From Gemmatimonadota bacterium (GTDB taxonomy: Bacteria > Gemmatimonadota > Gemmatimonadetes > Palauibacterales > Palauibacteraceae), in NCBI GenBank assembly GCA_022825725.1, contig JAJDWE010000060.1, forward strand, positions 1 through 36,621: a stretch of 36,621 bases of DNA, given 5' to 3'. The notes beneath the pieces were generated by a model. The model saw only the letters and a program-made list of their open reading frames with translations. It had not been told where the DNA came from and searched no databases. Positions 2,010 to 36,477 of this stretch are shown here, one piece after another (the stretch's first letter is position 1; the number at the start of each line of letters is the position of its first letter). The translations under genes were made by a program, and so were the position numbers.

Positions 2010-3770
2010 TCAGCAGGAGACGCAGCGGTGGTTGTTCTTCGCCCCCAGACTCTCGAGGAGGGCGATCGTCTCGGGGAACGGCTGCACCCGCTGCACCGGC
2101 CCGTTGGCCAGGTCCACCGTCGTCTGGCCGTTGCGGGCCACGAGCGTCACGTCAGCGCCCTGTTCGACGAGATAGAGGATCATCTCGTTGTCGCCGCGCG
2201 AGGCGGCGTGGTGGGCCGGCGTGTAGCCGTTGTGGTCGCGCGCGTTCACGTCGGCGCCGAGTTCCTCGACGAGGAACTTCATCGCCGGAAGCCAGCCGTC
2301 CGGCACGTGGCGGTGCGAGTTGCCGGCGAAGCCCTGCCCGTAGCCGACGCCGGCCGCCGCATGGATGGGGTGGACGGCGGGTCCGCCGACGGGGATCGGG
2401 TCGAGGCCGGAGTGATCGATGTTGTCTCCGCCACGGCCGTAACGCCTCGCCGGCACCTTCGCCGTCGGCGTCGCGGGATCTGCCCCGTACTCCAGGAGCA
2501 GCTTCATGGCTTCGATGTCGAGCGCGTGCGCGGCCCTCCAGAAGGGCGTGGCGCCGGTGCGGTCGACGCCGAGCAGGTCCCGGTTATACGTCGTGAACCA
2601 GAGAGACTTCTTCAGCCGCGGATTCGGGTCGACGCCCGCTTCGAGCAGCGTGCGCATCACGTCGAGGTACGACCACTGCTGCTGGTGGACATCCGTGGGC
2701 TGCGGATGCCGCGCCTTCGGCGCCCAGTGCATGTTGAGCGCCGCGTAGAGCGGCGTGGCGCCGGCGTCGCTCGCCAGGTTGGGGTCGGCGCCGCGCGCGA
2801 AGAGTTCCATCGCGAGATCGAAATGTCCGTTGATCATCGCGATGAGCAGCGGGGTCGTGTCGTCCGCGGCGCTCCGCTGGTCGATGTCCGCGCCCTTGTC
2901 GAGCAGGATCAGCGCCGCGTCGCGGTGGCCTTCGCGGGCCGCGAGCAGGAGCGCAGTCAGCCCCCCGTGCGTGCCGACGAGGTCGGCGTAGTTGCCCAGG
3001 CAGCCGGAACAGGTGGGCTCCTCGGGGTCCTCGAGCCGCACGGCCTGGAGGCCGGGGCCGGGCCCGGCGGTCGGCCTGGGGGCGGCTTCGCGCTGCGACG
3101 GGACCGGCGGCGCGCGGCCCGCCCGGAGCGCGGCCACGCGGGCATTGCGTTCGCGGCGGTCGAGCTGGTCCCACGCGTCCCGGGCGACGATGTCGAGCAC
3201 GTACGCCGTGAGCGAGGCGTCGGCCCCCGCGTCGATGAGGGCACTCACCGAGCCGGCCCGGCCCGCCGCCGCGGCGAACATGAGTGGCGTCTGGCCCCAT
3301 TCGGGCTCACGGGCGTCCGCATCGGCACCGTGGCGCAGCAGCGCCTCGACCGCCTCCGGCGACCCGGCCGAGGCCGCGAAGTGCAGCGCGGTCGCGCCGG
3401 TCGAGGTCGCCGCGTCCGCGTCCGCTCCCGCTTTCAGCAGCGCCCCTACAAGCAGACCGTGCGCCGCCCGGCTCGCCACGTGGAGCGGCGTGTGCCCGCC
3501 CAGCCGCGTGCCCGCCTCGAGGTCCGCGCCCGCGTCGATCAGCACCCCGGCCACGTCGAGCCGCCCCTTCATCGCGGCCCAGTGGAGTGCCGTCATGCCG
3601 TCGCCCAGGGCGCCGTTCACGTCCTCGCCCGCGGCGATCAGCGACCGCACGGCGTCCAGATCGCCGCGCATGGCCGCGTCGGCCACCGGAGCATCCGGCC
3701 CGGCCGGCGGCGCCGCCCCGAGCGCGAGCAGCGCCGCGCCCGCGAAGACGATCGATCGCGCGCGCCGCAT
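2010..3770 (-). CDS. Exported ankyrin-repeat protein
   Basis: A 586-residue protein starting MRRARSIVFAGAALLALGAA, a Sec-type signal peptide. It is followed by ankyrin repeats across most of its length, for example DGMTALHWAAMKGRLDVAGV, GATALHFAASAGSPEAVEAL, TPLLIAMINGHFDLAMELF and GYTPAHHAASRGDNEMILYL. A less regular middle section (about residues 185-250) holds a CSGC pair. Ankyrin repeats mediate protein-protein contacts; no catalytic domain is seen. The start is taken at 3770 because the frame upstream is only the shadow of the neighbouring DUF1552 gene, and because its ATG shares one base with that gene's TGA (TGATG), which implies translational coupling. It is the last gene of the DUF1592-DUF1552-ankyrin operon, so it probably works with them in the periplasm. 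The stop is preceded by a cysteine (RCVSC). Confidence 0.88.
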   Translation of the reverse strand: MRRARSIVFAGAALLALGAAPPAGPDAPVADAAMRGDLDAVRSLIAAGEDVNGALGDGMTALHWAAMKGRLDVAGVLIDAGADLEAGTRLGGHTPLHVASRAAHGLLVGALLKAGADADAATSTGATALHFAASAGSPEAVEALLRHGADADAREPEWGQTPLMFAAAAGRAGSVSALIDAGADASLTAYVLDIVARDAWDQLDRRERNARVAALRAGRAPPVPSQREAAPRPTAGPGPGLQAVRLEDPEEPTCSGCLGNYADLVGTHGGLTALLLAAREGHRDAALILLDKGADIDQRSAADDTTPLLIAMINGHFDLAMELFARGADPNLASDAGATPLYAALNMHWAPKARHPQPTDVHQQQWSYLDVMRTLLEAGVDPNPRLKKSLWFTTYNRDLLGVDRTGATPFWRAAHALDIEAMKLLLEYGADPATPTAKVPARRYGRGGDNIDHSGLDPIPVGGPAVHPIHAAAGVGYGQGFAGNSHRHVPDGWLPAMKFLVEELGADVNARDHNGYTPAHHAASRGDNEMILYLVEQGADVTLVARNGQTTVDLANGPVQRVQPFPETIALLESLGAKNNHRCVSC

Positions 3771-5161
3771 CAGTCCGCCGCCTCGGCGAAGGAGAACGAC
3801 CCGGTGCTGTTCCCGAAGCTCGTCATGTCGTCCATCCCGAGCCGGTGCATGAGGCTCAGCATCACGTTCGCCATCGGCGTCCCCGGCGCGGCCCGCAGGT
3901 GCAGGTTGCCCTCCATCCTCCCGTGTGCGCCGCCCACCACGAAGAGCGGGCACCGCTTGTGGTTGTGCACGTTCGGATCCCCCATCGGCGACCCGTAGAC
4001 GATCATCGTCTTGTCGAGCAGGTGCGTGTCCCCCTCCATCGACTCCTTCAGCCGGTCGAGGAAGTACGGGACGAGCCCGACGTGGTAGCGGTTGATCTGC
4101 GCGAAGTCCGTGATGTTGTTCTCGTTGTCGCCGTGGTGCGACGCCGGGTGGAAGCCGTTGTCGATCCCGCTCTCCGGGTAGACCCGCCCCGACGCGTCCC
4201 GTCCCATCTTGAACGAGAACACGCGCGTCATGTCCGCCTGGAAGGCGAGCGCCTGCAGGTCGAACATCAGCTTCACGTGCTCGTCGAACGAATCGGGCAC
4301 GCCCGCCGGCGCCTCCGGAAGATCCCGGTTCTCGCCGGACTCGTTGCGCGCCACGACCCGCTGGATGCGGCGCTCGATCTCCCGCACGTTCTCCAGGTAG
4401 CGGTCCATGCGCTGCCGGTCGGACGGATCGAGCCGCCCCTTGAGGCTCGCGACCTCGCCGGTGAGGAAGTCGAGGATGCTGACGCTCGAGCGCTGCCGCG
4501 CCGCGCGCGCCTCCGGCGTTCCGCCCGCTCCGAAGAGCTGGTCGAACGCGACCCGCGGATCCCGGATCATCGGAAGCGGCTGCGTCGGCGACGACCAGCT
4601 GATCGTGTCCGTGTAGACGCACGCGTACCCGTATGCGCAGCCCCCCGCCTGGTCGACGTTCTCGATGCAGAGCTGCATCGACGGGATCGGCGTGTCCTGC
4701 CCGAACCGGTTCGCGTACAGCTGGTCCATCGAGGTTCCCACAAAGACGTCCGAACTCTCGGTCTGTTTCGGATGCGCCTGCGTGAGGAACGTCGCGCTCG
4801 ACCGGAAGTGGTCGCCCCCGATTTCCTTCGGCTGCCTGGCTTCGGCCGGCTCGACGTCCGTATCGCTGATGATCGTGAGAAGATCCCGGTACGGCTCGAG
4901 CGAACTCAACGCGGTCGGCGACAGGTCGAACGCCCGGCCCGTCGCCGCGGGAGACCAGTAGTTCTGCGCCGCCCCGAACCCGCTGCTCCCCGCCGAGCCA
5001 TGCACCATCTCGATGCAGACGAGCCGCGTCGGATCCGCGACCTCGCGCGCCCACAGCCGGCCCGCCGGCACCATCGCATCGAGCAGCGGCAGAGCGACGG
5101 TCGCCCCCGCGCCCCGAAGGAACGTGCGGCGAGAGAGGTGTTTCCCTGTGATGAACTCCAT
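3770..5161 (-). CDS. DUF1552 protein, Tat-exported
   Basis: A 463-residue protein starting MEFITGKHLSRRTFLRGAGA, with a clear twin-arginine export motif (RRTFLRG) followed by a hydrophobic stretch ending near AMVPAGRLWA. The body matches the DUF1552 family seen in Planctomycetes, Acidobacteria and Gemmatimonadota: SPTALSSLEPYRDLLTIISD, a HPKQTESSDVFVGTSMDQLYA-type segment, and near the end FHPASHHGDNENN and LLDKTMIVYGSPMGDPN. The biochemical function of DUF1552 is not established; the histidine-rich parts resemble alkaline-phosphatase-fold (DUF1501-like) proteins, which is inference. The ATG at 5161 overlaps the upstream TGA by one base (TGATG), and the stop does the same with the ankyrin gene, so the three are translationally coupled. 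The longer open frame upstream of 5161 is shadow of the DUF1592 gene. Confidence 0.9.
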   Translation of the reverse strand: MEFITGKHLSRRTFLRGAGATVALPLLDAMVPAGRLWAREVADPTRLVCIEMVHGSAGSSGFGAAQNYWSPAATGRAFDLSPTALSSLEPYRDLLTIISDTDVEPAEARQPKEIGGDHFRSSATFLTQAHPKQTESSDVFVGTSMDQLYANRFGQDTPIPSMQLCIENVDQAGGCAYGYACVYTDTISWSSPTQPLPMIRDPRVAFDQLFGAGGTPEARAARQRSSVSILDFLTGEVASLKGRLDPSDRQRMDRYLENVREIERRIQRVVARNESGENRDLPEAPAGVPDSFDEHVKLMFDLQALAFQADMTRVFSFKMGRDASGRVYPESGIDNGFHPASHHGDNENNITDFAQINRYHVGLVPYFLDRLKESMEGDTHLLDKTMIVYGSPMGDPNVHNHKRCPLFVVGGAHGRMEGNLHLRAAPGTPMANVMLSLMHRLGMDDMTSFGNSTGSFSFAEAAD

Positions 5162-7665
5162 CAGTCCTCCCGGGATTCCGCTTGCATGTCGTCGACCACG
5201 GCCTCGGTCCCCTTCAACCGGAAGGCCGGGCTGTTGACCACGCCGAGGATGAACGCGGACATGCGGTGGTCCTGTTCGGCGGCCTGCCGCGCGATGGACC
5301 GCACGGTCGGCATGTCGTAGTACTCGACCCGCCGGCCCAGCGCGTAGGCGAGCAGGTTCTCCGTGAACGCGCGCACGAGCGGCACCGGCCGGGCGAGAAG
5401 CGCCGCGCGCAGATCCGCCGCGCTCGTCACCGGCGTGCCATCGTAGAGTTCGCCCTGCGCCTCGATCGGGCTCCCGCTGTCCTTGATGCGCCGCGCCCCC
5501 GTCCCGTCGAAGTACTCCAGCGCGAGACCGATCGGGTCGATCACGCGGTGGCACGAACGGCAGGCCGGGCTCGCGCGGTGCATCTCCAGCCGCTCCCGCA
5601 CCGTGAGCAGGCGGCCCTCCTCGGCCTCCGGCGTCGCCTCCAGATCGGAGACATCCGGCGGGGGCGGAGGCGGGGGCGTCCCCAGCAGCACCTCCATCAC
5701 CCACTTCCCTCGCAGCACCGGAGACGTCCGGCTCGCGTGCGAGGTGAGGGTGAGGACGCTGCCGTGCCCCAGCACGCCGCGGCGCTCCGGTTCAAGGATC
5801 TCGATCCTGCGGAAATCCGTTCCCGTCACGCCGGGAATCCCGTAGTGCCGCGCCAGGCGCTCGTTCACGAACGTGTAATCGGCCGTCAGGAGTTCGAGCA
5901 GGCTCCGGTCTTCCTGCACCAGCGTGTGGAAGAGCAGTTCCGTCTCGCGGTGCATCGCCTCCTTGAGCTGCTGGTCGAAGTCCGGATAGAGGCGGACATC
6001 GGGGTTCATGCCCTCGAGGTCCTGCAGCCGGAACCACTGTCCCGCGAAACGCGTGGCCAGCGCCTCGGCGCGCGGATCCGCCAGCATGCGGCGCACCTGC
6101 GCGTCGAGCACCGCCGGGGCGGAGAGCCGGCCCTCCGCGGCGACCTCAAGCAGTTCGTCGTCGGGGCCCGTGGCCCAGAGGAAGAAGGAGAGCCGCGAGG
6201 CTAGATCGTAGTCGTCCAGCGCGTACACCCCGTCCGCTTCGCGCGCGGGACGTTCCTCGAACCGGAAGACGAAGTGCGGGCTGGCGAGAATCCCCTCGAG
6301 CGCGAGCCGGATCCCCTCCTCGAACCCGCCCGCTCCCGCCCCGGCGCCGTACAGATTCATGAGCGCGGCGAGGTTGTCGTCCGTCAGCGGCCGGCGGTAG
6401 GCCCTCGTCCCCAGCCGCGAGAGGATCGTTTCCGCGCACCGGGCCTCTTCCTCCGGCGTTGAGGGGCGGCACGAGAACACGCGCTCGCGGCTCGGCGTGG
6501 ACGAGACCCCCGCCGGAGCGAAGGGCCCCGTCACCGCGAGGTCCCGCAGGTGCGGCAGCGTCGTGAACCCGTATGCGTCCGTGATGCTCGTGCTCGCGAT
6601 CGACCAGTCGTGCGGCGACATCAGGTCCTGCGACGGCCCCTCGAAGGTGCGGATGAAGGCGGCCGCCACCCGGTGGGGCCCCGCCTCGATGAAGACGGGA
6701 TCCGTCCGGAGGTTCACGCCGTCGGGATCGGAGACGTGCATCCAGCGGTCGATGTCGAGGAGCGCGACCCGTTCGCCGTCGATCGAGATCTCGATCCGTT
6801 CGGGCTCATCGGTCGTGTGCAGGGCGCCCTTCCCGTTCCCGAACAGGGCGCCGGTCGTCTCGTGATGGAAGGAGACGCGGAAGGCGTACTCCCCGTCGGC
6901 CGGGAAGTTGTGGTCCACTGCGACGCCGCCCCGGCTCCCGTACGGCGTGCCCTCGACGTGCTCCGCCTGGGAGGTCCAGCGCGACACCCGGAACGTCGCC
7001 TCGCTCGGCGTGACCTCCGGGTCGCCGACCGCGAGTCGGCTGATCTCGCTCGCCGCGCGCAGATACCCGTCCATGAGCGTCGGGGAGAGCAACTGGACGT
7101 CGGCGATGTTGTCGAAGTTCGCGCTCTTCGTATCCAGCGGCAGATAGTCGCCGGCGTCGATGTCCAGGTCGAGGAGATCGTAGATGGAGCGCGAATACTC
7201 GGCCCGGTTCAGCCGCTGGAAGGTCCGCCGTCCCGGGTTCGGGCTCGCCTCCCACGCCGCGTCGAGGCGGGACTCGAGGACGGCCGCGAGCGTCCGCAGG
7301 CTGTCGGGAGTCGGCCGGCGCACGCCGACGGGCGGCATCATCCCGGCCCGCAGCTTCCGCACCATCCGCTCCGCGATCACCGCGTTGTCGGAGGCCGAGG
7401 TCACCTCGAAGGTCTCGAGCGACATGCCCCCGCTGACCCGCCGCGGGTTGTGGCAGCGCATGCACGTCCCGGCGACGACGCTCTGCGCGACTTCGACGGA
7501 GAGCGTGTCGACGGCGGGGGCCGATGTCGGTGCCGTCAGCCGTGGGATCGGCTCGGGCCAACTGGCCGGGGGATGCGCGGCTCCCCGTACGCCGTCGGCC
7601 TCTTGACCGACGGCTGGACTCGGGAGAACACCCGCTGCGACCAGCAGCAGAAGCGATGTTCGCAT
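5161..7665 (-). CDS. Secreted DUF1592-type multidomain protein with c-type haem motifs (PSD1/DUF1587/1595/1592/1588/1585)
   Basis: An 834-residue protein beginning MRTSLLLLVAAGVLPSPAVG, a Sec signal peptide. A haem-binding CMRCH motif sits at residues 68-72 (planctomycete cytochrome C-like). A DUF1587 stretch follows (RRTFQRLNRAEYSRSIYDLL), then a carbohydrate-binding-like middle part, the DUF1595/1592 region (RRPLTDDNLAALMNLYG, ASRLSFFLWATGPDDELL), DUF1588 (SHASRTSPVLRGKWVMEVLL and a run of prolines) and C-terminal DUF1585 with a second CRSCH motif (SPACRSCHRVIDPIG). The start at 7665 has a good ribosome site (GGAAGAGG, 8 bases before) and removes 11 residues of non-signal sequence. It heads the operon with the DUF1552 and ankyrin genes. 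Known family context suggests periplasmic redox or polymer-related work; the exact reaction is unknown. Confidence 0.93.
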   Translation of the reverse strand: MRTSLLLLVAAGVLPSPAVGQEADGVRGAAHPPASWPEPIPRLTAPTSAPAVDTLSVEVAQSVVAGTCMRCHNPRRVSGGMSLETFEVTSASDNAVIAERMVRKLRAGMMPPVGVRRPTPDSLRTLAAVLESRLDAAWEASPNPGRRTFQRLNRAEYSRSIYDLLDLDIDAGDYLPLDTKSANFDNIADVQLLSPTLMDGYLRAASEISRLAVGDPEVTPSEATFRVSRWTSQAEHVEGTPYGSRGGVAVDHNFPADGEYAFRVSFHHETTGALFGNGKGALHTTDEPERIEISIDGERVALLDIDRWMHVSDPDGVNLRTDPVFIEAGPHRVAAAFIRTFEGPSQDLMSPHDWSIASTSITDAYGFTTLPHLRDLAVTGPFAPAGVSSTPSRERVFSCRPSTPEEEARCAETILSRLGTRAYRRPLTDDNLAALMNLYGAGAGAGGFEEGIRLALEGILASPHFVFRFEERPAREADGVYALDDYDLASRLSFFLWATGPDDELLEVAAEGRLSAPAVLDAQVRRMLADPRAEALATRFAGQWFRLQDLEGMNPDVRLYPDFDQQLKEAMHRETELLFHTLVQEDRSLLELLTADYTFVNERLARHYGIPGVTGTDFRRIEILEPERRGVLGHGSVLTLTSHASRTSPVLRGKWVMEVLLGTPPPPPPPDVSDLEATPEAEEGRLLTVRERLEMHRASPACRSCHRVIDPIGLALEYFDGTGARRIKDSGSPIEAQGELYDGTPVTSAADLRAALLARPVPLVRAFTENLLAYALGRRVEYYDMPTVRSIARQAAEQDHRMSAFILGVVNSPAFRLKGTEAVVDDMQAESRED

Positions 7666-7771
7666 GGCCGAAGCCTCTTCCAGGCAGCCGCGTCGCACCC
7701 CGCAGGGCGCAAGAATACACCAACTGGAAAATGTACCATCGACGCAGATCGCCCGGCCAGCCGCAGTCCTC

Positions 7772-27329: not shown

Positions 27330-28277
27330 CTACAGGAAGTGCGCGCCGGCGTGGTCCGCGAAACACTCGGCGTCGCGTATATAGCCCAATACGGTTGCCG
27401 GATTCTTATGGCGGGTGACCTCCATGATCTTGTCCAACCGGGCGCGGTGTGCCGCCGCGCTGGTGACGAACCCCGCACGAAGCGAGTGTGCCGAGTAGTC
27501 GGCCGGGTCGAGGCCGATCTTCGCCGCATAGCGCTTGACCAAGCGCGCCACCTCCCCCGGGTTCAGGGGTCTTCCGGTAGGCACACCCCCTTTTCTCATC
27601 GTTTGGAACACGTAGCCATCCGTAATCCCGACGCCGTCAAGCCACGCCAACAACCGGCTCATCGCCCGCACGACTCTTCCCTCTGGAACCGCAATCCGAT
27701 GCCCCATCCCGCTTTGATCCGTCTTTGAGCGCCGGATGTGTACGATCATGCCATCGGTCCGCTCCATCGCGATATCCCCTACGGTGAGACCACACAGTTC
27801 GGATCGCCGTAGTGCCGCCGCGAAGCCGAGCGCGAGCATTGCCGCATCTCGCCGACCATGTCGCGTCTGCGGGCACGCCTCCAGCATCGCCGTGATCCGA
27901 TCCTCCCGGAGAGCTTTTACCTGTCGAGGCGAGTTCTCCTGGAGCCGTGCCAGACCCCGAAGCGTCACCCCCACCTCGTAGCTCGCCGCCGGTGAGGGCA
28001 TCCCCATCTCGCGATACCGCCAGTTCAGAGCACTCCGGTAGATTCGCAGTGTCGCCAGGGACAATCCATGTCCTGTTGCTCCACTCGTTCCCGAACTCAG
28101 CGCCAACAAAAATGCCACTACGTCCCTCTCCGTGGCGCCCGCTGGCTGAATGCGCGCCTCTTCGCAGAACCCCACGAAGCACCGCCACCCCTTCTCGTAC
28201 GCCACCCGGGTGTTCCTCGCTTGAGACGCCCTTCGTACCTGATCCGCTGTCCTCCCCTCACACCAATCCGCTCCCAC
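27330..28277 (-). CDS. Tyrosine recombinase/integrase, likely invertase of the specificity switch
   Basis: A 315-residue tyrosine recombinase from GTG 28277, which has GGAGGGGG 6 bases upstream; a longer frame starts at 28391 but adds atypical sequence. The N-terminal core-binding domain includes RNTRVAYEKGWRCFVGFCEE and LSLATLRIYRSALNWRYREM. The catalytic domain has Arg in ALRRSELCGLTVGDI, Lys in IRRSKTDQSG, HxxR in HSLRAGFVTSAA, His in VTRHKNPATVLGY and the nucleophile Tyr in LGYIRDAECF. All residues needed for strand exchange are present and the frame is intact. Its nearest neighbour is the silent specificity cassette, with one 32-bp inverted repeat about 490 bases away. No phage or transposon genes accompany it, so a dedicated inversion function is the best reading (inference). 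Confidence 0.88.
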   Translation of the reverse strand: MGADWCEGRTADQVRRASQARNTRVAYEKGWRCFVGFCEEARIQPAGATERDVVAFLLALSSGTSGATGHGLSLATLRIYRSALNWRYREMGMPSPAASYEVGVTLRGLARLQENSPRQVKALREDRITAMLEACPQTRHGRRDAAMLALGFAAALRRSELCGLTVGDIAMERTDGMIVHIRRSKTDQSGMGHRIAVPEGRVVRAMSRLLAWLDGVGITDGYVFQTMRKGGVPTGRPLNPGEVARLVKRYAAKIGLDPADYSAHSLRAGFVTSAAAHRARLDKIMEVTRHKNPATVLGYIRDAECFADHAGAHFL

Positions 28278-28642
28278 TTCGTCCCCCTCCCCTCGTGGTT
28301 CGCCCCTCCACTCCCCCGTCTGCTTCCCCGCTATCCACAACCACCGATGAACCCCTCCCCCGGCGTCCCAAAATATGATCCCAAGCGCCACTGACGACCA
28401 TCGAACTCACGTATCCTGCTTCGCCGCGTTATGGTGCTCGTACACCCTCTTGACTCAGTCGCTCTGACGCACCGCCTCAGCAGTAGCGCTATCACTTCTC
28501 CAGTACATCAGTTTCGTCCGATGCGTCCGCCCTCGGTGACCGACCCTCATCCTCTGTCAGACCCATCTCCCCTGGCGTAGCCAACCGCCATCGTTCGTCC
28601 TCGTGATACCGCTCCTCCGGCATCGATTTCCGTCCTCATAAT
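28278..28642 (+). other. Non-coding stretch between recombinase and silent cassette
   Basis: I see no convincing gene here. It must hold the recombinase promoter on the minus strand. At its right edge a perfect 7-bp inverted repeat, ATTCCAT (28641-28647) and ATGGAAT (28653-28659) with a 5-base spacer, marks the place where similarity to the methyltransferase begins. No tRNA end or obvious attachment-site duplication was found. Confidence 0.5.
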
Positions 28643-29404
28643 TCCATTTATTATGGAATCAAGACTGGCTACAACCGTGCGTTCATCATCGACACGTCGA
28701 CACGAGACCAACTTGTCACGCACGATCCGCAGTCTGTTGATATCCTCAAGCCCATATTGAGAGGTCGCGATATTCAACGTTACCGCGCACAATGGGCCGG
28801 CCTGTGGTTAGTCGCCACTCTTCCTTCGCTCCACATCGATATCGACGAGTATCCAGCAATAAAGCGGCACCTGCTTTCCTATGGTAAGGAAAGGCTGTCG
28901 CAAACCGGCCGAGTCCTACCCAATGGACAGAAAGCGCGAAAAAAGACATCGCACGCCTGGTTTGAACTACAGGATACCTGTGCTTATCATGATGAATTTG
29001 CAGTCCCGAAGCTCCTCTGGATCGAACTCGCTGAGCGCGGGCGATTCGCCTACGACGAGACCGGAGTTTTCGTCGAAGCCACGGCGTTCATGATGACGGG
29101 CGCTCCCACGAAGTACCTGTGTGCAATCCTCAATTCTCGGCTGATCCAGTGGTTCCTTCACCACTATGCACCGACGTCTGGCTTGGGTGCGCTCCGGTGG
29201 AAGAAAGTCTACCTTGAGCGTGCACCGATCGTCCAGGTAGATCTCGGTGACCCCCTTGCCGATCTTGTCGACGATATCCTTCGCGCGACGGACGCCGATG
29301 CCAATGCGGACGTATCCGAGATCGAAACGGAGATCGATCGGTACGTATACAAGCTGTATGACCTGAGTGCCACCGAGATACGGGCCATCACCTCCCTAGT
29401 CTAA
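28643..29404 (+). CDS. Silent cassette: alternative C-terminal specificity domain of the methyltransferase
   Basis: An open frame without plausible start or ribosome site. It reads SIYYGIKTGYNRAFIIDTST, then VDILKPILRGRDIQRYRAQW, then FAVPKLLWIELAERGRFAYD, YLCAILNSRLIQWFLHHYAP, WKKVYLERAPIVQVDL and ends EIRAITSLV. It is a diverged copy of the last 240 or so residues of the methyltransferase at 29476-33036 (which has SIYRGILTGYNTAFLVDDEC, ILRGRDIQRYRAQWAGLWL, IPKLFWMDMSPQGRFAYSD, WLCAILNSNLVTWMVNRT), the TaqI-like target-recognition domain. It has no methylase motifs. It is oriented tail to tail with the active copy, 71 bases between stops. The intact frame and shared repeat argue that it is a reserve cassette and not decay. 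The TTG at 28757 is the only weak start candidate. Confidence 0.82.
   Translation, partial: SIYYGIKTGYNRAFIIDTSTRDQLVTHDPQSVDILKPILRGRDIQRYRAQWAGLWLVATLPSLHIDIDEYPAIKRHLLSYGKERLSQTGRVLPNGQKARKKTSHAWFELQDTCAYHDEFAVPKLLWIELAERGRFAYDETGVFVEATAFMMTGAPTKYLCAILNSRLIQWFLHHYAPTSGLGALRWKKVYLERAPIVQVDLGDPLADLVDDILRATDADANADVSEIETEIDRYVYKLYDLSATEIRAITSLV
28766..28797 (+). repeat. Inverted repeat, silent-cassette arm (32 bp, perfect)
   Basis: Identical on the opposite strand to 30068-30099. It begins CGCGATATTCAACGTTACCG and ends AATGGGC, and in both copies encodes RDIQRYRAQWA plus the first two bases of a Gly codon, in the same frame. The flanking homologous sequence differs at many positions, so the sharp block of identity marks a recombination crossover. 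Confidence 0.9.
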
Positions 29405-30067
29405 GGCTCGCACTCGTTCTCTGGCTCTAGCGTGCGACGCATTGCGCTTCGCACGCTTACGCCCGTGTGGTACCGCTAGCACGTGTTCGACTTCAGCACC
29501 ATTTCGATTTCCTTGTTCCGTAGGCCATACAGGTCGTAGACCAAATGATCTAGGTGGTTCTCTAGCTCGGACGTATCGGCAGCTACGTCTGCCTTTTTCA
29601 TCTTGAGTACTCTGTCGAGCGTGCGAAGGATCGGTCGTCGCTGTTCTGTTGAGACGATCGGAATGGGAATGGTTTCAACAACGAACTTTTGCCATTGAAC
29701 GAGACCGGCGCCAGTAGTTCTAGCCGTTCTGTTGACCATCCACGTCACGAGGTTACTGTTAAGAATTGCACAGAGCCATTTCAGTGATTCACCAGTTATG
29801 AAGTACGCCTTATCGTTACAGAATATGTTTGCATCAGAATACGCGAAGCGCCCTTGCGGAGACATGTCCATCCAAAAGAGTTTCGGAATTGTGAATTTGT
29901 CATGATAAGCACAGTTACGTAGATTGTATGGTGTGCTTCCTTTGTCGTAACGTGTGGCCAATCTATCGTAGAACTGATCGAGGTGACGTTTGACAGCCGG
30001 GTAATTGTCGATGTGAACGGCGGGAATATCATTGTAACCGTTGTGGGTAGCAATCAGCCATAGCCCT
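28798..30067. other. Predicted invertible segment (1270 bp) carrying two alternative specificity domains
   Basis: The DNA between the two 32-bp inverted repeats contains the two specificity-domain tails facing each other and a hairpin between their stops. The distance from repeat to stop is 592 bases in the active arm and 607 in the silent arm; both leave one base to complete the shared Gly codon, so inversion keeps the methyltransferase frame. The switch would replace 196 C-terminal residues with 201 others (protein of 1186 or 1191 residues). Inference from sequence; the orientation given here is one of the two expected states. Confidence 0.75.
29429..29457. terminator. Hairpin between convergent specificity tails, possible bidirectional terminator
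   Basis: AGCGTGCGA (29429-29437) and TCGCACGCT (29449-29457) form a perfect 9-bp stem with an 11-base loop, in the 71-base gap between the two converging stop codons. It would serve whichever specificity domain is expressed. There is no long U-run on either side. Confidence 0.5.
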
Positions 30068-33036
30068 GCCCATTGTGCGCGGTAACGTTGAATATCGCGG
30101 CCGCGCAAGATCGGAGTGAGGATGTCAGCGGATGTCGGATCTTCGGCAATCAGCTGCTGACGACACTCGTCGTCAACAAGAAATGCCGTATTGTACCCGG
30201 TGAGAATACCACGGTAAATGGAAATATCATCCCAATCGCCGAGAGGCTTACCCCTGGCAAGCATTTTCTCCATCACGCTCCACTCAACGTCCGTGAGAAT
30301 GCTCCACGGCTCGGTCCGGTTGGGACGGACCTGCGCCCATTCCGTAGCGGGAGGGGGGAACTCCCGAGGGTCTTGGACACGGTCGATGTCGACTCCGGGA
30401 AAAGGCTCGGCGGTGCCTCCGGCCCGGAGCACGAGGACACTCGCGTCTACCACTGCATCGAAGACATCCTTCCCCATGTCGATGAGGCGGAGCGGTGTGT
30501 GGCGGCGGTCGAAGTACTCTCGCAACGGCTCACCGTATTTTGCTCTCAACCAGCTGTTGGACGTGATGTACGCCAAGGCGCCCCGCGGGCGAAGAAGCCG
30601 ACAGCCTTTCTCCAAGAAGAGCCCGTAGATGTCGCCGGTGGAGGCGTACGTAGCGAACCCGGCATCTCCATATCGCCTTCTGAGTGTTCCCCCGTCCCTC
30701 TGCAACTGGATGTAGGGTGGATTGCCTATCACGACATCGAAACCGCGCTTGACGCCGAACATGTACTCCGCGTCGAACCACGGGGCGACTTTGTTCTGAT
30801 CGTATGGATCCCAACGGGCGACCTGTTCGGCGGTGTCGGTGGGAAAACCGAGGGCCCCGAGTTCGCCGGCGAGCTGCGTGCGGAGCCGTCGGTCCTCGGT
30901 CATACAGTCGAGCTTGGCTTGTCGTTGGTTGGCGTGGAAGTGCCGCTCCCGGTTCGTCAGGAGTTGACCTTCCAGTTCGCGTACGCGCTGGCTCTCGCTG
31001 GAGAGCGTCCGTTCACGCTGAAGCTCGAGGAGCGCGTCGGCGGCCACGAAACGGGTCTCCAGATTCGGGAGGGGCCTGATGCCTTGGTTTGGAAGCTGCG
31101 GGTCAGGCTCCTGTTCAATCGCAAGAGAGATGAAGAAACGGAGCTTGGCGATCTGACATGCGATGGCTTGGATGTCAGCTCCATAGATGCTGTTCTGGAT
31201 CAAGTAGAGCTTTCGCCCGAAATCATCGGAATAGCGCTGGAACGTACGGCTGATCTCGATCAGATCATCTTCGCGTTCGACCGGATCTCTCGTCTCGTAG
31301 GCGGCAGTTGATCGTTGCGTCGCAGCTTCCTTCTGTAGTTTGAGCCAGAGTTGGTTTTCGGGATCGAGTCTACGCAGTGCAAGGGTGAGCTTGTTGAGAA
31401 CGGCCATCGGAAATGCGCCTGAGCCAACGGCGGGATCCAACACCTTGAGGTCGGCAATTCCTCGAACCACGGCCTCCGTGTCCTCTGGCGCGAACAAGTC
31501 GCCAGCGTCTTCATAGTCGAGGAGATAACGTAGGCGAGCACGCCAGAAGTCCGCATCCCCGTCTTCCGGTTGCGCCTTCTCCGCCAGCGCGATGATGAGA
31601 GCCTCATCCACCATGTAGTCGACGACAGGGCGGGGTGTGTAGTAGGAGCCTGTTTGCCTGCGGGCCGTCTCACGCGTCTCTGGGTTGTACGCCGCGAGGA
31701 GGTGTTCGAACACCTTCCCGAGGAGTTCCGGATCGAGAGCCACCTCGGTTTCCACGGGCGTGTTCTCCTTCACCGTGAACTTGAATCGCTGGAGGAGTGT
31801 GAACAGCCCCGCGTCGTCGAAGAAGAGTGCATCGGGCACGTTCAGGAATTTCCAAGCTCGGCGTCGCGCGCGTTGCGCGTTGGGGCCGTCGGCCGGGTCG
31901 GGGTCGCTGAACATGTCCACCCGCTTGCCGCCGCTGCCCTCGGACTCTTCATCATCCAGGCAGTCAAACAGACCTCCGTTGATGAAGGGCGTCCGCGCCA
32001 TCAACGCTTCGAACCCCTCGATGTCTCGGATGAGGGAACGGTAGCGCCATCGGCTGAACACGCGGTGGCTATCGCGGGTTCGCGTGCTCCAAGCCCGCTG
32101 TTCCGATGGGGCGTTCAACGTGGCGAAGAAGAGGTTCTGCAGGACAGCCCGGTAGTAGTCGGAGCCGCCGAACTCGCGAAGAAGCTCTTCCATCCGCTCT
32201 CGCTTGAACCAATCGTCCGAGACCAGCCCCTTCTCCTTGATGAACCAGACGAACAGCACGCGTGTAATGCACCGGATGACCTGCTGCTCCGAGGGCGCAT
32301 CGGGCGGCCACTCCCCTTCTCGGCAGGCCCGCTCGAACCAGTCGAACAACTGGCGATAAAACCGACGGTTCAAGGGCTCGGTGTCCAAGGCGTTTTCCCA
32401 CGCCGCGTGTAGCTCGTCAAAGCTCCAGCGCTCGTGCTCCCGTGAGAGTTTCTCAAGCGCCAGGCCCGCCAAGATGTCAATGTGAGCGCGATGCGGATCT
32501 TCCGCCCGGACATCCTTCACGAGGGTGACCCTCTCCAACACGTCCCGCGTGGGGTCTCTCTTGTGTGCCCGCCGGTGGACCACGGCCACCGTGAACACAT
32601 TGGCGCCGGCAGGCCTTCGGTAGCGGTATATCACGATGACCGGCATCGCGAAGATGCGATTAACGTTGCGGGTCATGTCCGCCAAGCGACCCCTCGCGTA
32701 TTCCCCTTCCCTCAGTTGGACAGCCATGAAGAGGAAGGACTCGGCCCGACTCTTCTCGAACCCCACCACACCGGAGAGAGCGTCCGAGGCACGAAGTTCG
32801 TCTTCGGTGAACTGGAACACGGCCTGCACATCGGACCAGGCATTGAACGACGCGAGCTGGGTCTCGGTCAGCTCCGCCTCTTTGCACAGATCCAGGAACT
32901 CCGGCACGCCATCAACGGATGGCACTCGGTTGCTACTGTAACCGAGAACGCCGAGGAGGCCAGCTGCGCTCTCTTGGAGTGACCGGTCGGAGAAGGTGCG
33001 GACTTCGTCGCGAATACGGCTCAGAAGATCAGGCAT
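29476..33036 (-). CDS. Eco57I-like N6-adenine DNA methyltransferase with switchable C-terminal specificity domain
   Basis: An 1186-residue protein. An N-terminal helical region of about 480 residues (FLFMAVQLREGEYARGRLAD, ITRVLFVWFIKEKGLVSD) precedes the methylase core: RQTGSYYTPRPVVDYMVDEA, motif I LKVLDPAVGSGAFPMAVLNK, NSIYGADIQAIACQIAKLRF, and motif IV DVVIGNPPYIQLQRDGG, the NPPY of adenine-N6 methylases. GALAYITSNSWLRAKYGEPL follows. From about residue 930 a TaqI-like target-recognition domain runs to the end. The perfect 32-bp repeat falls at codons for RDIQRYRAQW in this domain. The ATG directly follows the helicase TAA with no gap, so expression is coupled. It should set the DNA sequence modified, and probably attacked, by the pair. 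GC content is visibly lower than in the flanking chromosome. Confidence 0.9.
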   Translation of the reverse strand: MPDLLSRIRDEVRTFSDRSLQESAAGLLGVLGYSSNRVPSVDGVPEFLDLCKEAELTETQLASFNAWSDVQAVFQFTEDELRASDALSGVVGFEKSRAESFLFMAVQLREGEYARGRLADMTRNVNRIFAMPVIVIYRYRRPAGANVFTVAVVHRRAHKRDPTRDVLERVTLVKDVRAEDPHRAHIDILAGLALEKLSREHERWSFDELHAAWENALDTEPLNRRFYRQLFDWFERACREGEWPPDAPSEQQVIRCITRVLFVWFIKEKGLVSDDWFKRERMEELLREFGGSDYYRAVLQNLFFATLNAPSEQRAWSTRTRDSHRVFSRWRYRSLIRDIEGFEALMARTPFINGGLFDCLDDEESEGSGGKRVDMFSDPDPADGPNAQRARRRAWKFLNVPDALFFDDAGLFTLLQRFKFTVKENTPVETEVALDPELLGKVFEHLLAAYNPETRETARRQTGSYYTPRPVVDYMVDEALIIALAEKAQPEDGDADFWRARLRYLLDYEDAGDLFAPEDTEAVVRGIADLKVLDPAVGSGAFPMAVLNKLTLALRRLDPENQLWLKLQKEAATQRSTAAYETRDPVEREDDLIEISRTFQRYSDDFGRKLYLIQNSIYGADIQAIACQIAKLRFFISLAIEQEPDPQLPNQGIRPLPNLETRFVAADALLELQRERTLSSESQRVRELEGQLLTNRERHFHANQRQAKLDCMTEDRRLRTQLAGELGALGFPTDTAEQVARWDPYDQNKVAPWFDAEYMFGVKRGFDVVIGNPPYIQLQRDGGTLRRRYGDAGFATYASTGDIYGLFLEKGCRLLRPRGALAYITSNSWLRAKYGEPLREYFDRRHTPLRLIDMGKDVFDAVVDASVLVLRAGGTAEPFPGVDIDRVQDPREFPPPATEWAQVRPNRTEPWSILTDVEWSVMEKMLARGKPLGDWDDISIYRGILTGYNTAFLVDDECRQQLIAEDPTSADILTPILRGRDIQRYRAQWAGLWLIATHNGYNDIPAVHIDNYPAVKRHLDQFYDRLATRYDKGSTPYNLRNCAYHDKFTIPKLFWMDMSPQGRFAYSDANIFCNDKAYFITGESLKWLCAILNSNLVTWMVNRTARTTGAGLVQWQKFVVETIPIPIVSTEQRRPILRTLDRVLKMKKADVAADTSELENHLDHLVYDLYGLRNKEIEMVLKSNTC
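30068..30099 (-). repeat. Inverted repeat, expressed arm inside the methyltransferase gene (32 bp, perfect)
   Basis: The reverse complement of 28766-28797 without mismatch. It lies within the methyltransferase's specificity domain, codons for RDIQRYRAQW. Just outside it the two homologous copies differ (for example GGC against GGT before, AGGGC against CGGCC after), so identity is limited to this block. Confidence 0.9.
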
Positions 33037-36000
33037 TTAAGTGGGATCCGTGATGGCGAGCCAAGTGATCAACTCGAACGCTTCGGCTCCGTGCGGGCTC
33101 TCTGATTGTTTGGTCACCTTGGCCCCACGACTCTTAGTCAGTTCCTTCAGCTCGGCGCTTCGGAACTTCCCGCGAATCCGCCGCACCGCCTGCGCCAGCA
33201 TCTTCTCGTACCGGGCCATCTCCTGCCCATGCCCAGTGTCTCGATCAAAAGCATTCACGAGGTCGGCGAGAGCGTCCTCGCGACCTGCCGCTAGTGCCCG
33301 GCACAGCGACAGGATCTGCTTCGCTTGCTGGAACGAATAGCGCACGGTTCCGTCTTCCCTTACGTACGCAAGGAAGTAGGGGTGGAGGCGGTTTGGAGTT
33401 CGCTCTGCAGCTGCGGTGCGTAGCTTGAGGCAGAATACCACTCCCGGGCGAATCTTTTTTGAATCGCCGACGGCAGTGGCTGGCTCCGGCGGCACCACCG
33501 CGCAGATACCGAATGGCGCGGCTTCGATTTCGGCCCGTCGGGACTGAAGGTATTGCATCAACTCGGCTAGGAAATCATCGAGGGTAAAGTCGCTCATGGA
33601 AACCCCATCGTCCACATCCTCGATGTCGAGGCTCTCCTCCCGTATTCGCCGGAGCTGACGCTCACGGAATCCGAGTTCGTATTGGGCAGCTTGTTCCAAG
33701 GCTTCGACCGAATCGGCGGCGAGCAAGTCGTCCTGTCCGGTCGCCGCCGCAGCGACGAGCGCCATACGAGCCTCGACTCGGTTCTTCAAATCCAGGTAGC
33801 GGTCCAGATCCTGGGTGGGCCAGAAATTGGCCATGGCAACGCGGTGATTGCGGCTGCCGATCCGGTCGATACGTCCGAAACGCTGCATCAGCCGTACCGG
33901 GTTCCAATGAATGTCGTAGTTCACCACAAGATCGCAGTCCTGGAGGTTCTGCCCTTCGGACAGGCAGTCGGTAGCAATCAGGATGTCGATCTGCTCCGCC
34001 CCGCGCGCAGCATCCTGCGCCTTCGGCGCAAATCCTCCGAGAATCTCGGCGAACTTCTTAGACCCGAGCGTGCTCTGATTGCCGCCGCTTCCGGTGACCA
34101 CGGCGATGTGAACTCCGAGCACAGATTGCGCCCACTCGTGGAGATTCTCATAGAGGTATTGGGCTGTGTCCGAGAACGTAGTGAAAACCAACGCTTTCCG
34201 ATTGCGCTCTCCATCCTTGGTAACAGGTGCCTTCCTGACCTTCTGCTCCAGGAGCTCTCGCAGTTTCCTCAGTTTCGCGTCGCGCTCAACCCCGACCTGC
34301 TTCGCCTGACGAAATATCTCGTAGAACATCCGTCGGTCACTCCGCAGATCTTCTTGCCAAGCTCCAAGGTTTAGGTCGATGAGCGGATACCTCCGCCCCT
34401 TTCCAAACGTGAACTCCTCATCTTCTTCGTCCTCATCCGCGAGGAGCGTAACTTGGTGTTTCCCCGGATCCTCCAAGCAACGTTCTATTCGCTGATTCAG
34501 TTCGTCCATCTTACCGAGAATGCGCTCCATCGTGAGCGTGAACGAGTGGACGGAACTCTCCAGTCTCTTGAGAAGGTTCACGCGCATCATGCCGACCAGC
34601 CAATGCTCTCGGTCCCGCTGGTCGAAGTTCAGTTTCGCCTTCTCCTCCTCCAGCTTCGACTTATCCCTCAGGTATTGCGAGGGCATGTAGACGGCGAGCC
34701 GAAACTTGCTAATCCGCTCGTATAGGCTGTCGTATGAGAGTCGGCCCTCGCTATCCGTGGGCGGATGCAGGTTCGTCGGGACATCTCGCTCCGGAAAACC
34801 TCCGATCTTTCGCTCAACCTCGGGATAGGCACGACGGATGTGCTTCCGAGAGCGTGCGATCGTTACGGCGTCGAGGACTGCGAGAAAATCCGCTCCAAGC
34901 CGTTCGAGCAGGGCGCCCTTGTTCCTTTCATTACTCTCCGAAGACTCCTTCTCCCACTTTTGGAATTCCTTTTGCGCCAACCTAAACACGTTTCGGATGT
35001 CGTCGATCCCGACAGTATCCTGGAACGCGTCCTGCTGTTTCTCCGTCATCAGATATATCTGGTTTCGGAGATCGCGGAGGCTTGTGTTCACGGGGGTCGC
35101 CGAGAGCATGAGTACCTTAGTGTGCCCGCCTTCCTTGATTACTTCCTCTAGAAGACGGTTGTAACGACTCCGTGCGATCAGGCTCCCCTCGTCGTCCTTC
35201 CTATCCCGGCCCTCGTTACGGAAATTGTGAGACTCGTCGATCACGATGAGATTGAACGCACTCCAGTTGAAGCCTGCGAGATCGATTCCTCCGGCCATCC
35301 CGCCAGTGCGGCTCAGGTCCGTATGAGCGAGAACGGTGTAGCCCAAGCGGTCCTCGGCGAGCGGGTTGTTTGCTTGGCCAGCCCAGGACGTATAGCGAAT
35401 CCAGTTCTGCTCAAGTTTCTTGGGGCAGAGAACCAGCACTCTGTCGTTATTGATTTCGAAGAACTTGATGACGGCGAGTGCTGTCCACGTTTTTCCGAGT
35501 CCCACGCTGTCGGCGATGATGCAACCGTTGTGCCGCATGAGCCGATTGATCGCACTGACGGCCCCATCCTTCTGGAACGAGAACAAGGCGTTCCAGACCT
35601 TAGTGTCGTGCAAGTGAACGTCTCGGATCAGCCCGTCGCGTTCAGCCTGATCCGCGAGTTTCTCTTCAAGCACGTGGAACAGCGTCTTGTAGTAGACGAA
35701 CTCGGGCGCGTAGTCTTTGCCCAACTTCGCCAAGGCCGTCAGTACGTCCTCCTTTGCATCCCGCGTAAGGTCCTGATCGTTCCAGAGCGCGTCGAACCAA
35801 CGCAGGAGAGGCTCCCGATCCGCTTCCCTACGAAGCTCGATATTCAACTCGATGTTCGGGCTGGCGCCGAGGCCGAGGCCACCCCGCGTGAAGTTGGAAC
35901 TGCCTAGAACTGCCGAGCTGTCCCCGTTTCGCTGAGCCAAGTGGTAGAGCTTCCCGTGCAGAAAGTTGCTCTCCTTGATGGTGCGGATATCGACCTTGCT

Positions 36001-36315
36001 TTGGATCCACGCTTCGCACGCCCGTGCCAGCGGTTTCTGCGCTAGAACGCGCTTGAGCTTGATTCCACCGTCGGCCGTCAACCGGAACGCCTTGTCCGCA
36101 TCCCCTCCAGGGTCCACCACGCCGACGCCCCGCGGCTCACCGTAGAGAAAGCGCATCCCTCGAATCGATTCGAGTTCCGCACGCAAATCGTCGTAGGCGT
36201 AGATCGTGAAGTATGCAGACACGACTGACAGCAGTGTCTCGTCCGTGATCCGATGTCGCAGGAAGTCGCCGACCCTGCGATCGCGGTTGTCGATGATCGC
36301 GTCACGCCTCGTCAT
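33037..36315 (-). CDS. SNF2-family helicase with N-terminal PLD-type nuclease domain
   Basis: About 1092 residues from ATG 36315 (a GTG at 36339 is also possible; neither has a strong ribosome site). The N-terminal 190 residues are a phospholipase-D-like nuclease domain with FLHGKLYHLAQRNGD and GSSNFTRGGLG (HxK and GSxN). The SF2/SNF2 helicase follows: Walker A IADSVGLGKTWTALAVIKFF, DExH-type LIVIDESHNFRNEGRD, motif III MLSATPVNTSLRDLRNQIYL, then an inserted helical region, and the second RecA lobe KALVFTTFSDTAQYLYEN, IATDCLSEGQNLQDCDLVV and the arginine finger QRFGRIDRIGSRNHR. It probably translocates on and cuts DNA at sites chosen by the methyltransferase encoded immediately downstream (TAA then ATG). 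Together they resemble a split version of single-chain translocating restriction enzymes. Confidence 0.9.
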   Translation of the reverse strand: MTRRDAIIDNRDRRVGDFLRHRITDETLLSVVSAYFTIYAYDDLRAELESIRGMRFLYGEPRGVGVVDPGGDADKAFRLTADGGIKLKRVLAQKPLARACEAWIQSKVDIRTIKESNFLHGKLYHLAQRNGDSSAVLGSSNFTRGGLGLGASPNIELNIELRREADREPLLRWFDALWNDQDLTRDAKEDVLTALAKLGKDYAPEFVYYKTLFHVLEEKLADQAERDGLIRDVHLHDTKVWNALFSFQKDGAVSAINRLMRHNGCIIADSVGLGKTWTALAVIKFFEINNDRVLVLCPKKLEQNWIRYTSWAGQANNPLAEDRLGYTVLAHTDLSRTGGMAGGIDLAGFNWSAFNLIVIDESHNFRNEGRDRKDDEGSLIARSRYNRLLEEVIKEGGHTKVLMLSATPVNTSLRDLRNQIYLMTEKQQDAFQDTVGIDDIRNVFRLAQKEFQKWEKESSESNERNKGALLERLGADFLAVLDAVTIARSRKHIRRAYPEVERKIGGFPERDVPTNLHPPTDSEGRLSYDSLYERISKFRLAVYMPSQYLRDKSKLEEEKAKLNFDQRDREHWLVGMMRVNLLKRLESSVHSFTLTMERILGKMDELNQRIERCLEDPGKHQVTLLADEDEEDEEFTFGKGRRYPLIDLNLGAWQEDLRSDRRMFYEIFRQAKQVGVERDAKLRKLRELLEQKVRKAPVTKDGERNRKALVFTTFSDTAQYLYENLHEWAQSVLGVHIAVVTGSGGNQSTLGSKKFAEILGGFAPKAQDAARGAEQIDILIATDCLSEGQNLQDCDLVVNYDIHWNPVRLMQRFGRIDRIGSRNHRVAMANFWPTQDLDRYLDLKNRVEARMALVAAAATGQDDLLAADSVEALEQAAQYELGFRERQLRRIREESLDIEDVDDGVSMSDFTLDDFLAELMQYLQSRRAEIEAAPFGICAVVPPEPATAVGDSKKIRPGVVFCLKLRTAAAERTPNRLHPYFLAYVREDGTVRYSFQQAKQILSLCRALAAGREDALADLVNAFDRDTGHGQEMARYEKMLAQAVRRIRGKFRSAELKELTKSRGAKVTKQSESPHGAEAFELITWLAITDPT

Positions 36316-36477
36316 AACCGGAGAGCCCAATGTTATCACCTATGTTCGCGTCGATGTTGAATGGAGACGCCACAATCCACGGCATCGACGTGTCCGTCAA
36401 CCCAGGTCGCTACCGGAACGTCTCCTGGGAAGTTTGGCACAGATATCTGCCGTTCCAGCCGATTCGAAACGCTCGCG
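36316..36477. other. Island boundary, intergenic
   Basis: 162 bases between the sigma-factor stop and the helicase start. It must contain the helicase-methyltransferase promoter on the minus strand, but I cannot point to convincing -35 and -10 boxes. No coding signal and no clear repeat with the other end of the island (27284-27330) were seen. Confidence 0.35.

What the first reader, a model, noticed from the sequence alone, without database searches (positions are those of the whole stretch)
28766..30099. Invertible specificity switch in a PLD-helicase/adenine-methyltransferase defence locus
A silent second copy of the methyltransferase's C-terminal target-recognition domain lies tail to tail with the active one, and both carry the same 32-bp block at homologous codons in inverted orientation. 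Recombination there would swap 196 residues for 201 others in frame. Recombinase-driven domain switching is established for Type I hsdS genes and has been reported for the BREX methylase PglX. I do not know of a description for this PLD-SNF2 plus Eco57I-like pair in this kind of organism, so it may be new.
Basis: partly seen in the sequence, partly recalled or inferred. Interest (0 to 1): 0.93.

Follow-up and report, generated by a model that had tools for sequence, protein, structure and literature searches.

The report
Invertible DNA-target switch in methylase defence
A DNA-methylating enzyme that probably protects a bacterium while a partner nuclease attacks phages carries a spare, back-to-front copy of its DNA-reading end beside a recombinase, and the same layout in unrelated bacteria indicates that the segment is flipped to change which DNA sequence the system recognises.

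Summary
Observation confirmed. A 32-bp exact inverted repeat (28766-28797 / 30068-30099) lies at homologous codons of an active Eco57I/TaqI_C-type adenine methyltransferase and of a silent, intact, tail-to-tail copy of its target-recognition domain (TRD). In-silico inversion stays in frame (1186 to 1191 aa; 192 residues replaced by 197). The same layout (PLD-SNF2 helicase, methyltransferase, inverted silent TRD, recombinase) occurs across distant bacteria. In the methyltransferase-based locus set all 5 loci with an inverted TRD have a recombinase next to it, and none of the 59 others has such a recombinase there (p=1.3e-7). One of the five has an unrelated serine recombinase. Two TRD N-half classes occur once each per locus, active in either order, and silent copies are as conserved as active ones. 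In other genomes, contigs end exactly at the repeats, as expected if both orientations coexist. A second short identity in mid-TRD suggests up to four states, as in inverting Type I hsdS. Best reading: a programmed specificity switch, a new variant of a known kind. Inversion in this organism, the methylation motifs and phage defence are not shown.

The parts
33037..36339 (-). PLD (HKD)-SNF2 helicase, 1100 aa, putative restriction effector
   Evidence: Pfam Helicase_C 4.3e-15, SNF2-rel_dom 2.6e-08, PLDc_2 4.9e-06 (just under its cut-off); PADLOC C3a139 'HKD+Snf2' 1.3e-121
29476..33036 (-). Adenine-N6 methyltransferase with the active C-terminal TRD, 1186 aa; adjoins the helicase gene
   Evidence: Pfam Eco57I 2.3e-31, TaqI_C 4.6e-11; NPPY motif invariant or nearly so in 29 homologues; fold matches M.BseCI, CamA, M.TaqI, PglX, MmeI
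29476..30067 (-). Active TRD part exchanged by inversion (N-half class a, C-half class alpha)
28643..29404 (+). Silent TRD cassette: intact frame, no N-terminal methyltransferase part (N-half class s, C-half class gamma)
   Evidence: Pfam TaqI_C 8e-16
28766..28797 (+). Inverted repeat, left copy (site B), in the silent TRD
30068..30099 (-). Inverted repeat, right copy (site B), in the active TRD
28978..28992 (+). Second short inverted identity (site C, CTGTGCTTATCATGA), silent copy
   Evidence: same codons as 18-49 bp exact pairs in L008, L010, L117, L148, L167
29900..29914 (-). Site C, active copy
28766..30099 (.). Predicted invertible segment
   Evidence: In-silico inversion keeps the methyltransferase frame
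27330..28391 (-). Tyrosine recombinase, 353 aa, predicted invertase
   Evidence: Pfam Phage_integrase 1.2e-17; R195/R196, K223, H302, R305, H328, Y337 invariant in 13 loci; one clade with the recombinases of the other switch loci

Best explanation
The locus is a two-gene, restriction-modification-like system, a PLD-SNF2 helicase/nuclease plus an adenine methyltransferase, with a recombinase-driven specificity switch. The tyrosine recombinase at 27330-28391 is proposed to recombine the 32-bp inverted repeats. This flips 28766-30099 and exchanges the active TRD for the silent one in frame, so that methylation and self/non-self recognition change together. A second short site in mid-TRD (site C) may allow the C-half to be exchanged separately, giving up to four specificities. 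Shown: anatomy, in-frame product, conservation of the whole unit, mosaic TRD halves, constraint on silent copies, contig breaks at the sites in other genomes. Inferred: that this recombinase does it, that it happens in this organism, that the TRDs read different motifs, and that the outcome is phage defence.
For: (1) Exact repeat in diverged surroundings, in-frame product. (2) Layout recurs in L008, L010, L022, L074, L167, L168, and partly in L117, L148, L011. (3) Of 64 loci from the methyltransferase scan with at least 2 kb downstream, 5 have an inverted TRD and all 5 have a recombinase beside it; none of the other 59 has such a recombinase there, p=1.3e-7. (4) In L049 the recombinase is a serine Resolvase-family protein. 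(5) N-half TRDs fall into two classes, 66% identical within and 26% between; each of the seven loci with both halves known has one of each, active a in WIN, L008, L010, L074 and active s in L022, L167, L168. C-halves form three classes and all six pairings occur. (6) Silent copies are as conserved within class (0.667) as active ones (0.652), and their frames are intact in the tyrosine-recombinase loci. (7) Exact-repeat position follows recombinase phylogeny: site B in WIN, L008, L168, site A in the other clade, split support 100/99. (8) Contigs end at the sites: L019 and L149 both end on the last base of the same 24-bp repeat; L016 ends on the last base of a 39-bp repeat; L165 and L117 begin at repeat boundaries; p=1.4e-6 for four of seven truncated contigs ending in one 51-bp stretch.
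Against: No reads were available and the window's own contig shows one orientation. Site C in the window is only 15 bp. One P0003-like recombinase (L169, G618) has no such methyltransferase beside it and an apparent transposase upstream. Contig breaks are indirect; the assembler's k was not known. The site-type correlation rests on one evolutionary change.
Confidence: 0.83

Rival explanations
1. The silent TRD is a slow evolutionary reservoir: rare RecA-type recombination or gene conversion occasionally swaps TRDs, with no programmed inversion, and the recombinase has another role.
For: Sites A, B and C lie in conserved protein motifs that would keep some DNA similarity in any case. No reads show both orientations.
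Against: Identity is confined to short blocks, too short for efficient homologous recombination (established knowledge), in otherwise diverged copies. A recombinase is present in 5 of 5 loci with an inverted TRD found through the methyltransferase. A serine recombinase occupies the same place in L049. Contig ends fall exactly at the repeats.
Confidence: 0.1
2. The recombinase is a remnant of a mobile element that landed by chance, and the inverted TRD is a duplication artefact.
For: P0003 belongs to a wide integrase family common on plasmids, at most about 42% identical in the rows listed; L169 has a relative next to an apparent transposase.
Against: Conserved position and orientation across distant bacteria; a supported clade of switch-linked recombinases; no relative confirmed in IMG/VR and only weak phage hits; silent frames intact and constrained.
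Confidence: 0.03
3. The inversion is real, but its main purpose is changing host gene expression by methylation (a phasevarion) rather than varying phage defence.
For: Inverting Type I systems are discussed as phasevarions (PMC7394358).
Against: The methyltransferase gene adjoins a PLD-SNF2 helicase gene, a putative restriction effector; by PMC12839542 an HKD-Swi2/Snf2 helicase with an N6-methyltransferase is taken as RM-like.
Confidence: 0.2

Closest known systems
Inverting Type I restriction-modification (duplicated hsdS with inverted repeats, e.g. SpnD39III; PMC7394358)
   Same: Inverted silent TRD copy downstream, repeats before and between TRD halves, locus-encoded recombinase, predicted four alleles from two pairs of repeats.
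   Different: Here the TRD is fused to a single-chain Eco57I/TaqI_C methyltransferase; no separate HsdS in the pair; the partner is a PLD-SNF2 helicase; repeats are short (about 15-49 bp); hosts are uncultured bacteria, many probably sponge symbionts.
DUF499-centred BREX-related Type-2 systems (PMC12839542)
   Same: HKD nuclease fused to a Swi2/Snf2 helicase plus an N6-methyltransferase, considered RM-like.
   Different: DUF499 ATPase is absent from this genome; DUF3780 not seen in the locus; the words recombinase, integrase and inversion do not occur in that paper.
BREX PglX/BrxX
   Same: Single-chain adenine methyltransferase of similar size; fold match 8c45, E 1.2e-15.
   Different: Score 71.9 against a cut-off of 500 for the BREX-1 PglX model; no BREX partner genes recognised around it.
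Type IIG enzymes / MmeI
   Same: PADLOC REase_MTase_IIG 1.7e-135; MmeI among the fold matches.
   Different: No nuclease domain identified by Pfam in the methyltransferase.

Membership tests
Inverting Type I RM system | Inverted repeats pairing the expressed TRD with a silent variant copy | tested here: met
Inverting Type I RM system | Separate HsdS subunit with HsdM and HsdR | tested here: not met
   TRD is fused to the methyltransferase; no HsdR or HsdS family in these proteins
Inverting Type I RM system | Locus-encoded site-specific recombinase | tested here: met
DUF499-centred BREX-related Type-2 system | DUF499 ATPase | tested here: not met
   PF04465 not found in G000, 97.7% complete
DUF499-centred BREX-related Type-2 system | HKD-Swi2/Snf2 helicase plus N6-methyltransferase | tested here: met
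DUF499-centred BREX-related Type-2 system | DUF3780 gene | not tested
   Not seen next to the pair; no genome-wide search was left
BREX | PglX at the NCBIfam cut-off | tested here: not met
   71.9 against 500 bits
DISARM class 1 | DrmD at the NCBIfam cut-off | tested here: not met
   159.2 against 610 bits
Type IIG RM enzyme | Endonuclease domain in the same chain | tested here: inconclusive
   No nuclease domain by Pfam; PADLOC IIG models match
Invertible DNA element | Both orientations present in a population | tested here: inconclusive
   Contig ends at repeats in other genomes; no reads available

The most novel reading that the evidence does not exclude
A widespread, hitherto undescribed shufflon-like defence system: PLD-SNF2/adenine-methyltransferase loci in distant bacteria that independently acquired tyrosine and serine invertases to exchange both TRD halves, giving up to four specificities per genome.
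Probability: 0.55. Interest if true: 0.82.

Novelty: new variant of a known kind. Interest (0 to 1): 0.72.

Why it matters
If right, programmed specificity switching is not confined to Type I hsdS subunits but has arisen in a single-chain methyltransferase paired with a PLD-SNF2 helicase, with two unrelated recombinase families in the same position. It would make a testable case of bacteria hedging against phages by changing the self/non-self code of a defence system, in uncultured symbionts where long-read metagenomes could show orientation and methylome together.

Tried and rejected
Chance repeat: rejected (conservation in relatives). Phage or plasmid integrase: only distant relatives in the plasmid and phage records and none confirmed in IMG/VR. 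The 20-bp site-B pattern gave no match in viral contigs. BREX, DISARM and DUF499 membership: cut-offs or components not met. The 16-row recombinase tree with distant outgroups left the inner branches unresolved; without them the split is 100/99. Clustering of whole C-halves was dominated by outliers; the variable core gave three classes. A shared core motif linking sites A, B and C was looked at by eye only and is not claimed. No strain-level comparison was possible (one genome per species).

Full report
Observation. The window is the whole contig C71 (36621 bases) of a 3.49-Mb assembly in 84 contigs. A 32-bp exact inverted repeat lies at 28766-28797 and 30068-30099. One copy is in the C-terminal part of a 1186-aa methyltransferase (29476-33036, minus strand); the other is at the homologous codons of a tail-to-tail copy of that part (28643-29404, plus strand) that lacks the methyltransferase body. 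The copies are otherwise diverged (47% amino-acid identity), and codons are identical over the block with P about 1.2e-4 given the same residues. The segment occurs only here in the genome. Inverting 28766-30099 in silico yields an open 1191-aa protein with 192 residues replaced by 197.

Genes. The methyltransferase carries Eco57I and TaqI_C domains; the silent copy carries TaqI_C alone. NPPY is invariant or nearly so in 29 homologues. The AlphaFold model is confident in the TRD (about 90 pLDDT), and the model's best PDB matches are the DNA-reading adenine methyltransferases M.BseCI and CamA, with PglX and MmeI lower. The adjoining gene encodes a PLD (HKD)-SNF2 helicase. Beyond the silent TRD lies a tyrosine recombinase with all catalytic residues, which are invariant in 13 loci.

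Relatives. A scan with the methyltransferase gave 80 loci, many with titles naming lineages known from sponges (the sponge link is my inference from the names). Of these, 64 have at least 2 kb downstream. Five have an inverted TRD (L008, L010, L022, L074, L049), and all five have a recombinase beside it; none of the 59 others has a P0003-like or L049-like recombinase downstream (a weak serine-type hit in L073 and two weak integrase hits in L068 and L070 are not in that arrangement). Recombinases of other families were not searched for. Four of the five recombinases are P0003-like; the fifth, in L049, is a serine recombinase (PF00239 1.7e-34), an unrelated enzyme in the same place. Searching whole genomes with the recombinase found further switch loci or their fragments: L117 in the window's genus, L148, L149, L165, L166, L167, L168, and one orphan, L169.

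Evidence for switching. The N-half of the TRD comes in two classes, 66% identical within and 26% between. In each of the seven loci where both are known there is one of each, and either can be in the active position. The C-half comes in three classes, and all six pairings occur, so the halves have been exchanged separately. Silent copies are as well conserved within class as active ones (0.667 and 0.652), and the tyrosine-recombinase loci have intact silent frames, which suggests that they are expressed at times. The position of the longest exact repeat is site B (RDIQRY codons) in WIN and L168, with a 20-bp match there in L008, and site A (about 25 codons upstream) in the loci of the sister recombinase clade; that split has support 100/99. 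It reflects one evolutionary change, so it is supportive, not conclusive. Site C (CAYH codons) gives exact matches of 18-49 bp in several loci and 15 bp in the window.

Contig breaks. In G212 the methyltransferase contig (L019) and the recombinase contig (L149) end on the same last base of a 24-bp repeat. L016 ends on the last base of a 39-bp repeat; L165 and L117 begin at repeat boundaries; L164, L166 and L148 end or begin within about 6-31 bp of one. A repeat shorter than the assembler's word should break a contig only if reads support both continuations, so both orientations probably coexist. The assembler settings were not known. The window's own contig is unbroken.

Mechanism and limits. 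I conclude that the locus is a recombinase-driven specificity switch of an RM-like system. Inversion in this organism, the catalyst, the two motifs and phage defence are inferred. The anatomy parallels inverting Type I hsdS systems (PMC7394358), but the TRD is fused to a single-chain methyltransferase with a PLD-SNF2 partner. It is not a DUF499-centred BREX-related system as defined in PMC12839542, since DUF499 is absent. I found no description of such a switch in the held library, which lacks most subscription journals.

Noticed in passing
L049:12616-13221 (+), L049:11561-12451 (-): In a Planctomycetaceae MAG a Resolvase-family serine recombinase sits beside the inverted silent TRD. The silent copy carries an early stop and a partial duplication at its repeat.
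   Followed up: partly
L010:8227-8967, L016:10001-10750, L018:7509-8255, L019:5959-6705, L023:6025-6717: A separate stretch similar to part of the methyltransferase body lies between helicase and methyltransferase in several relatives.
   Followed up: no
G000:C9:45567-46202: A second stretch in this genome resembles methyltransferase residues 3-217 (46% identity) near a contig end, perhaps part of another such system.
   Followed up: no
L169:2735-3661: An orphan P0003-like recombinase (G618) with an apparent transposase upstream and a distant helicase (28%) downstream.
   Followed up: partly
L047: The closest methyltransferase and helicase (67% and 70% identity) are in a Vicinamibacteraceae MAG without the switch, which suggests horizontal transfer.
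   Followed up: no
L039:15071-15348: A TRD tail fragment repeated in direct orientation downstream of the methyltransferase, in an assembled chromosome without the recombinase.
   Followed up: no
window 2010-5054 (-) and 5161-7698 (-): An ankyrin-repeat protein of 1014 aa next to a protein with DUF1592/1588/1585/1595/1587 domains.
   Followed up: no
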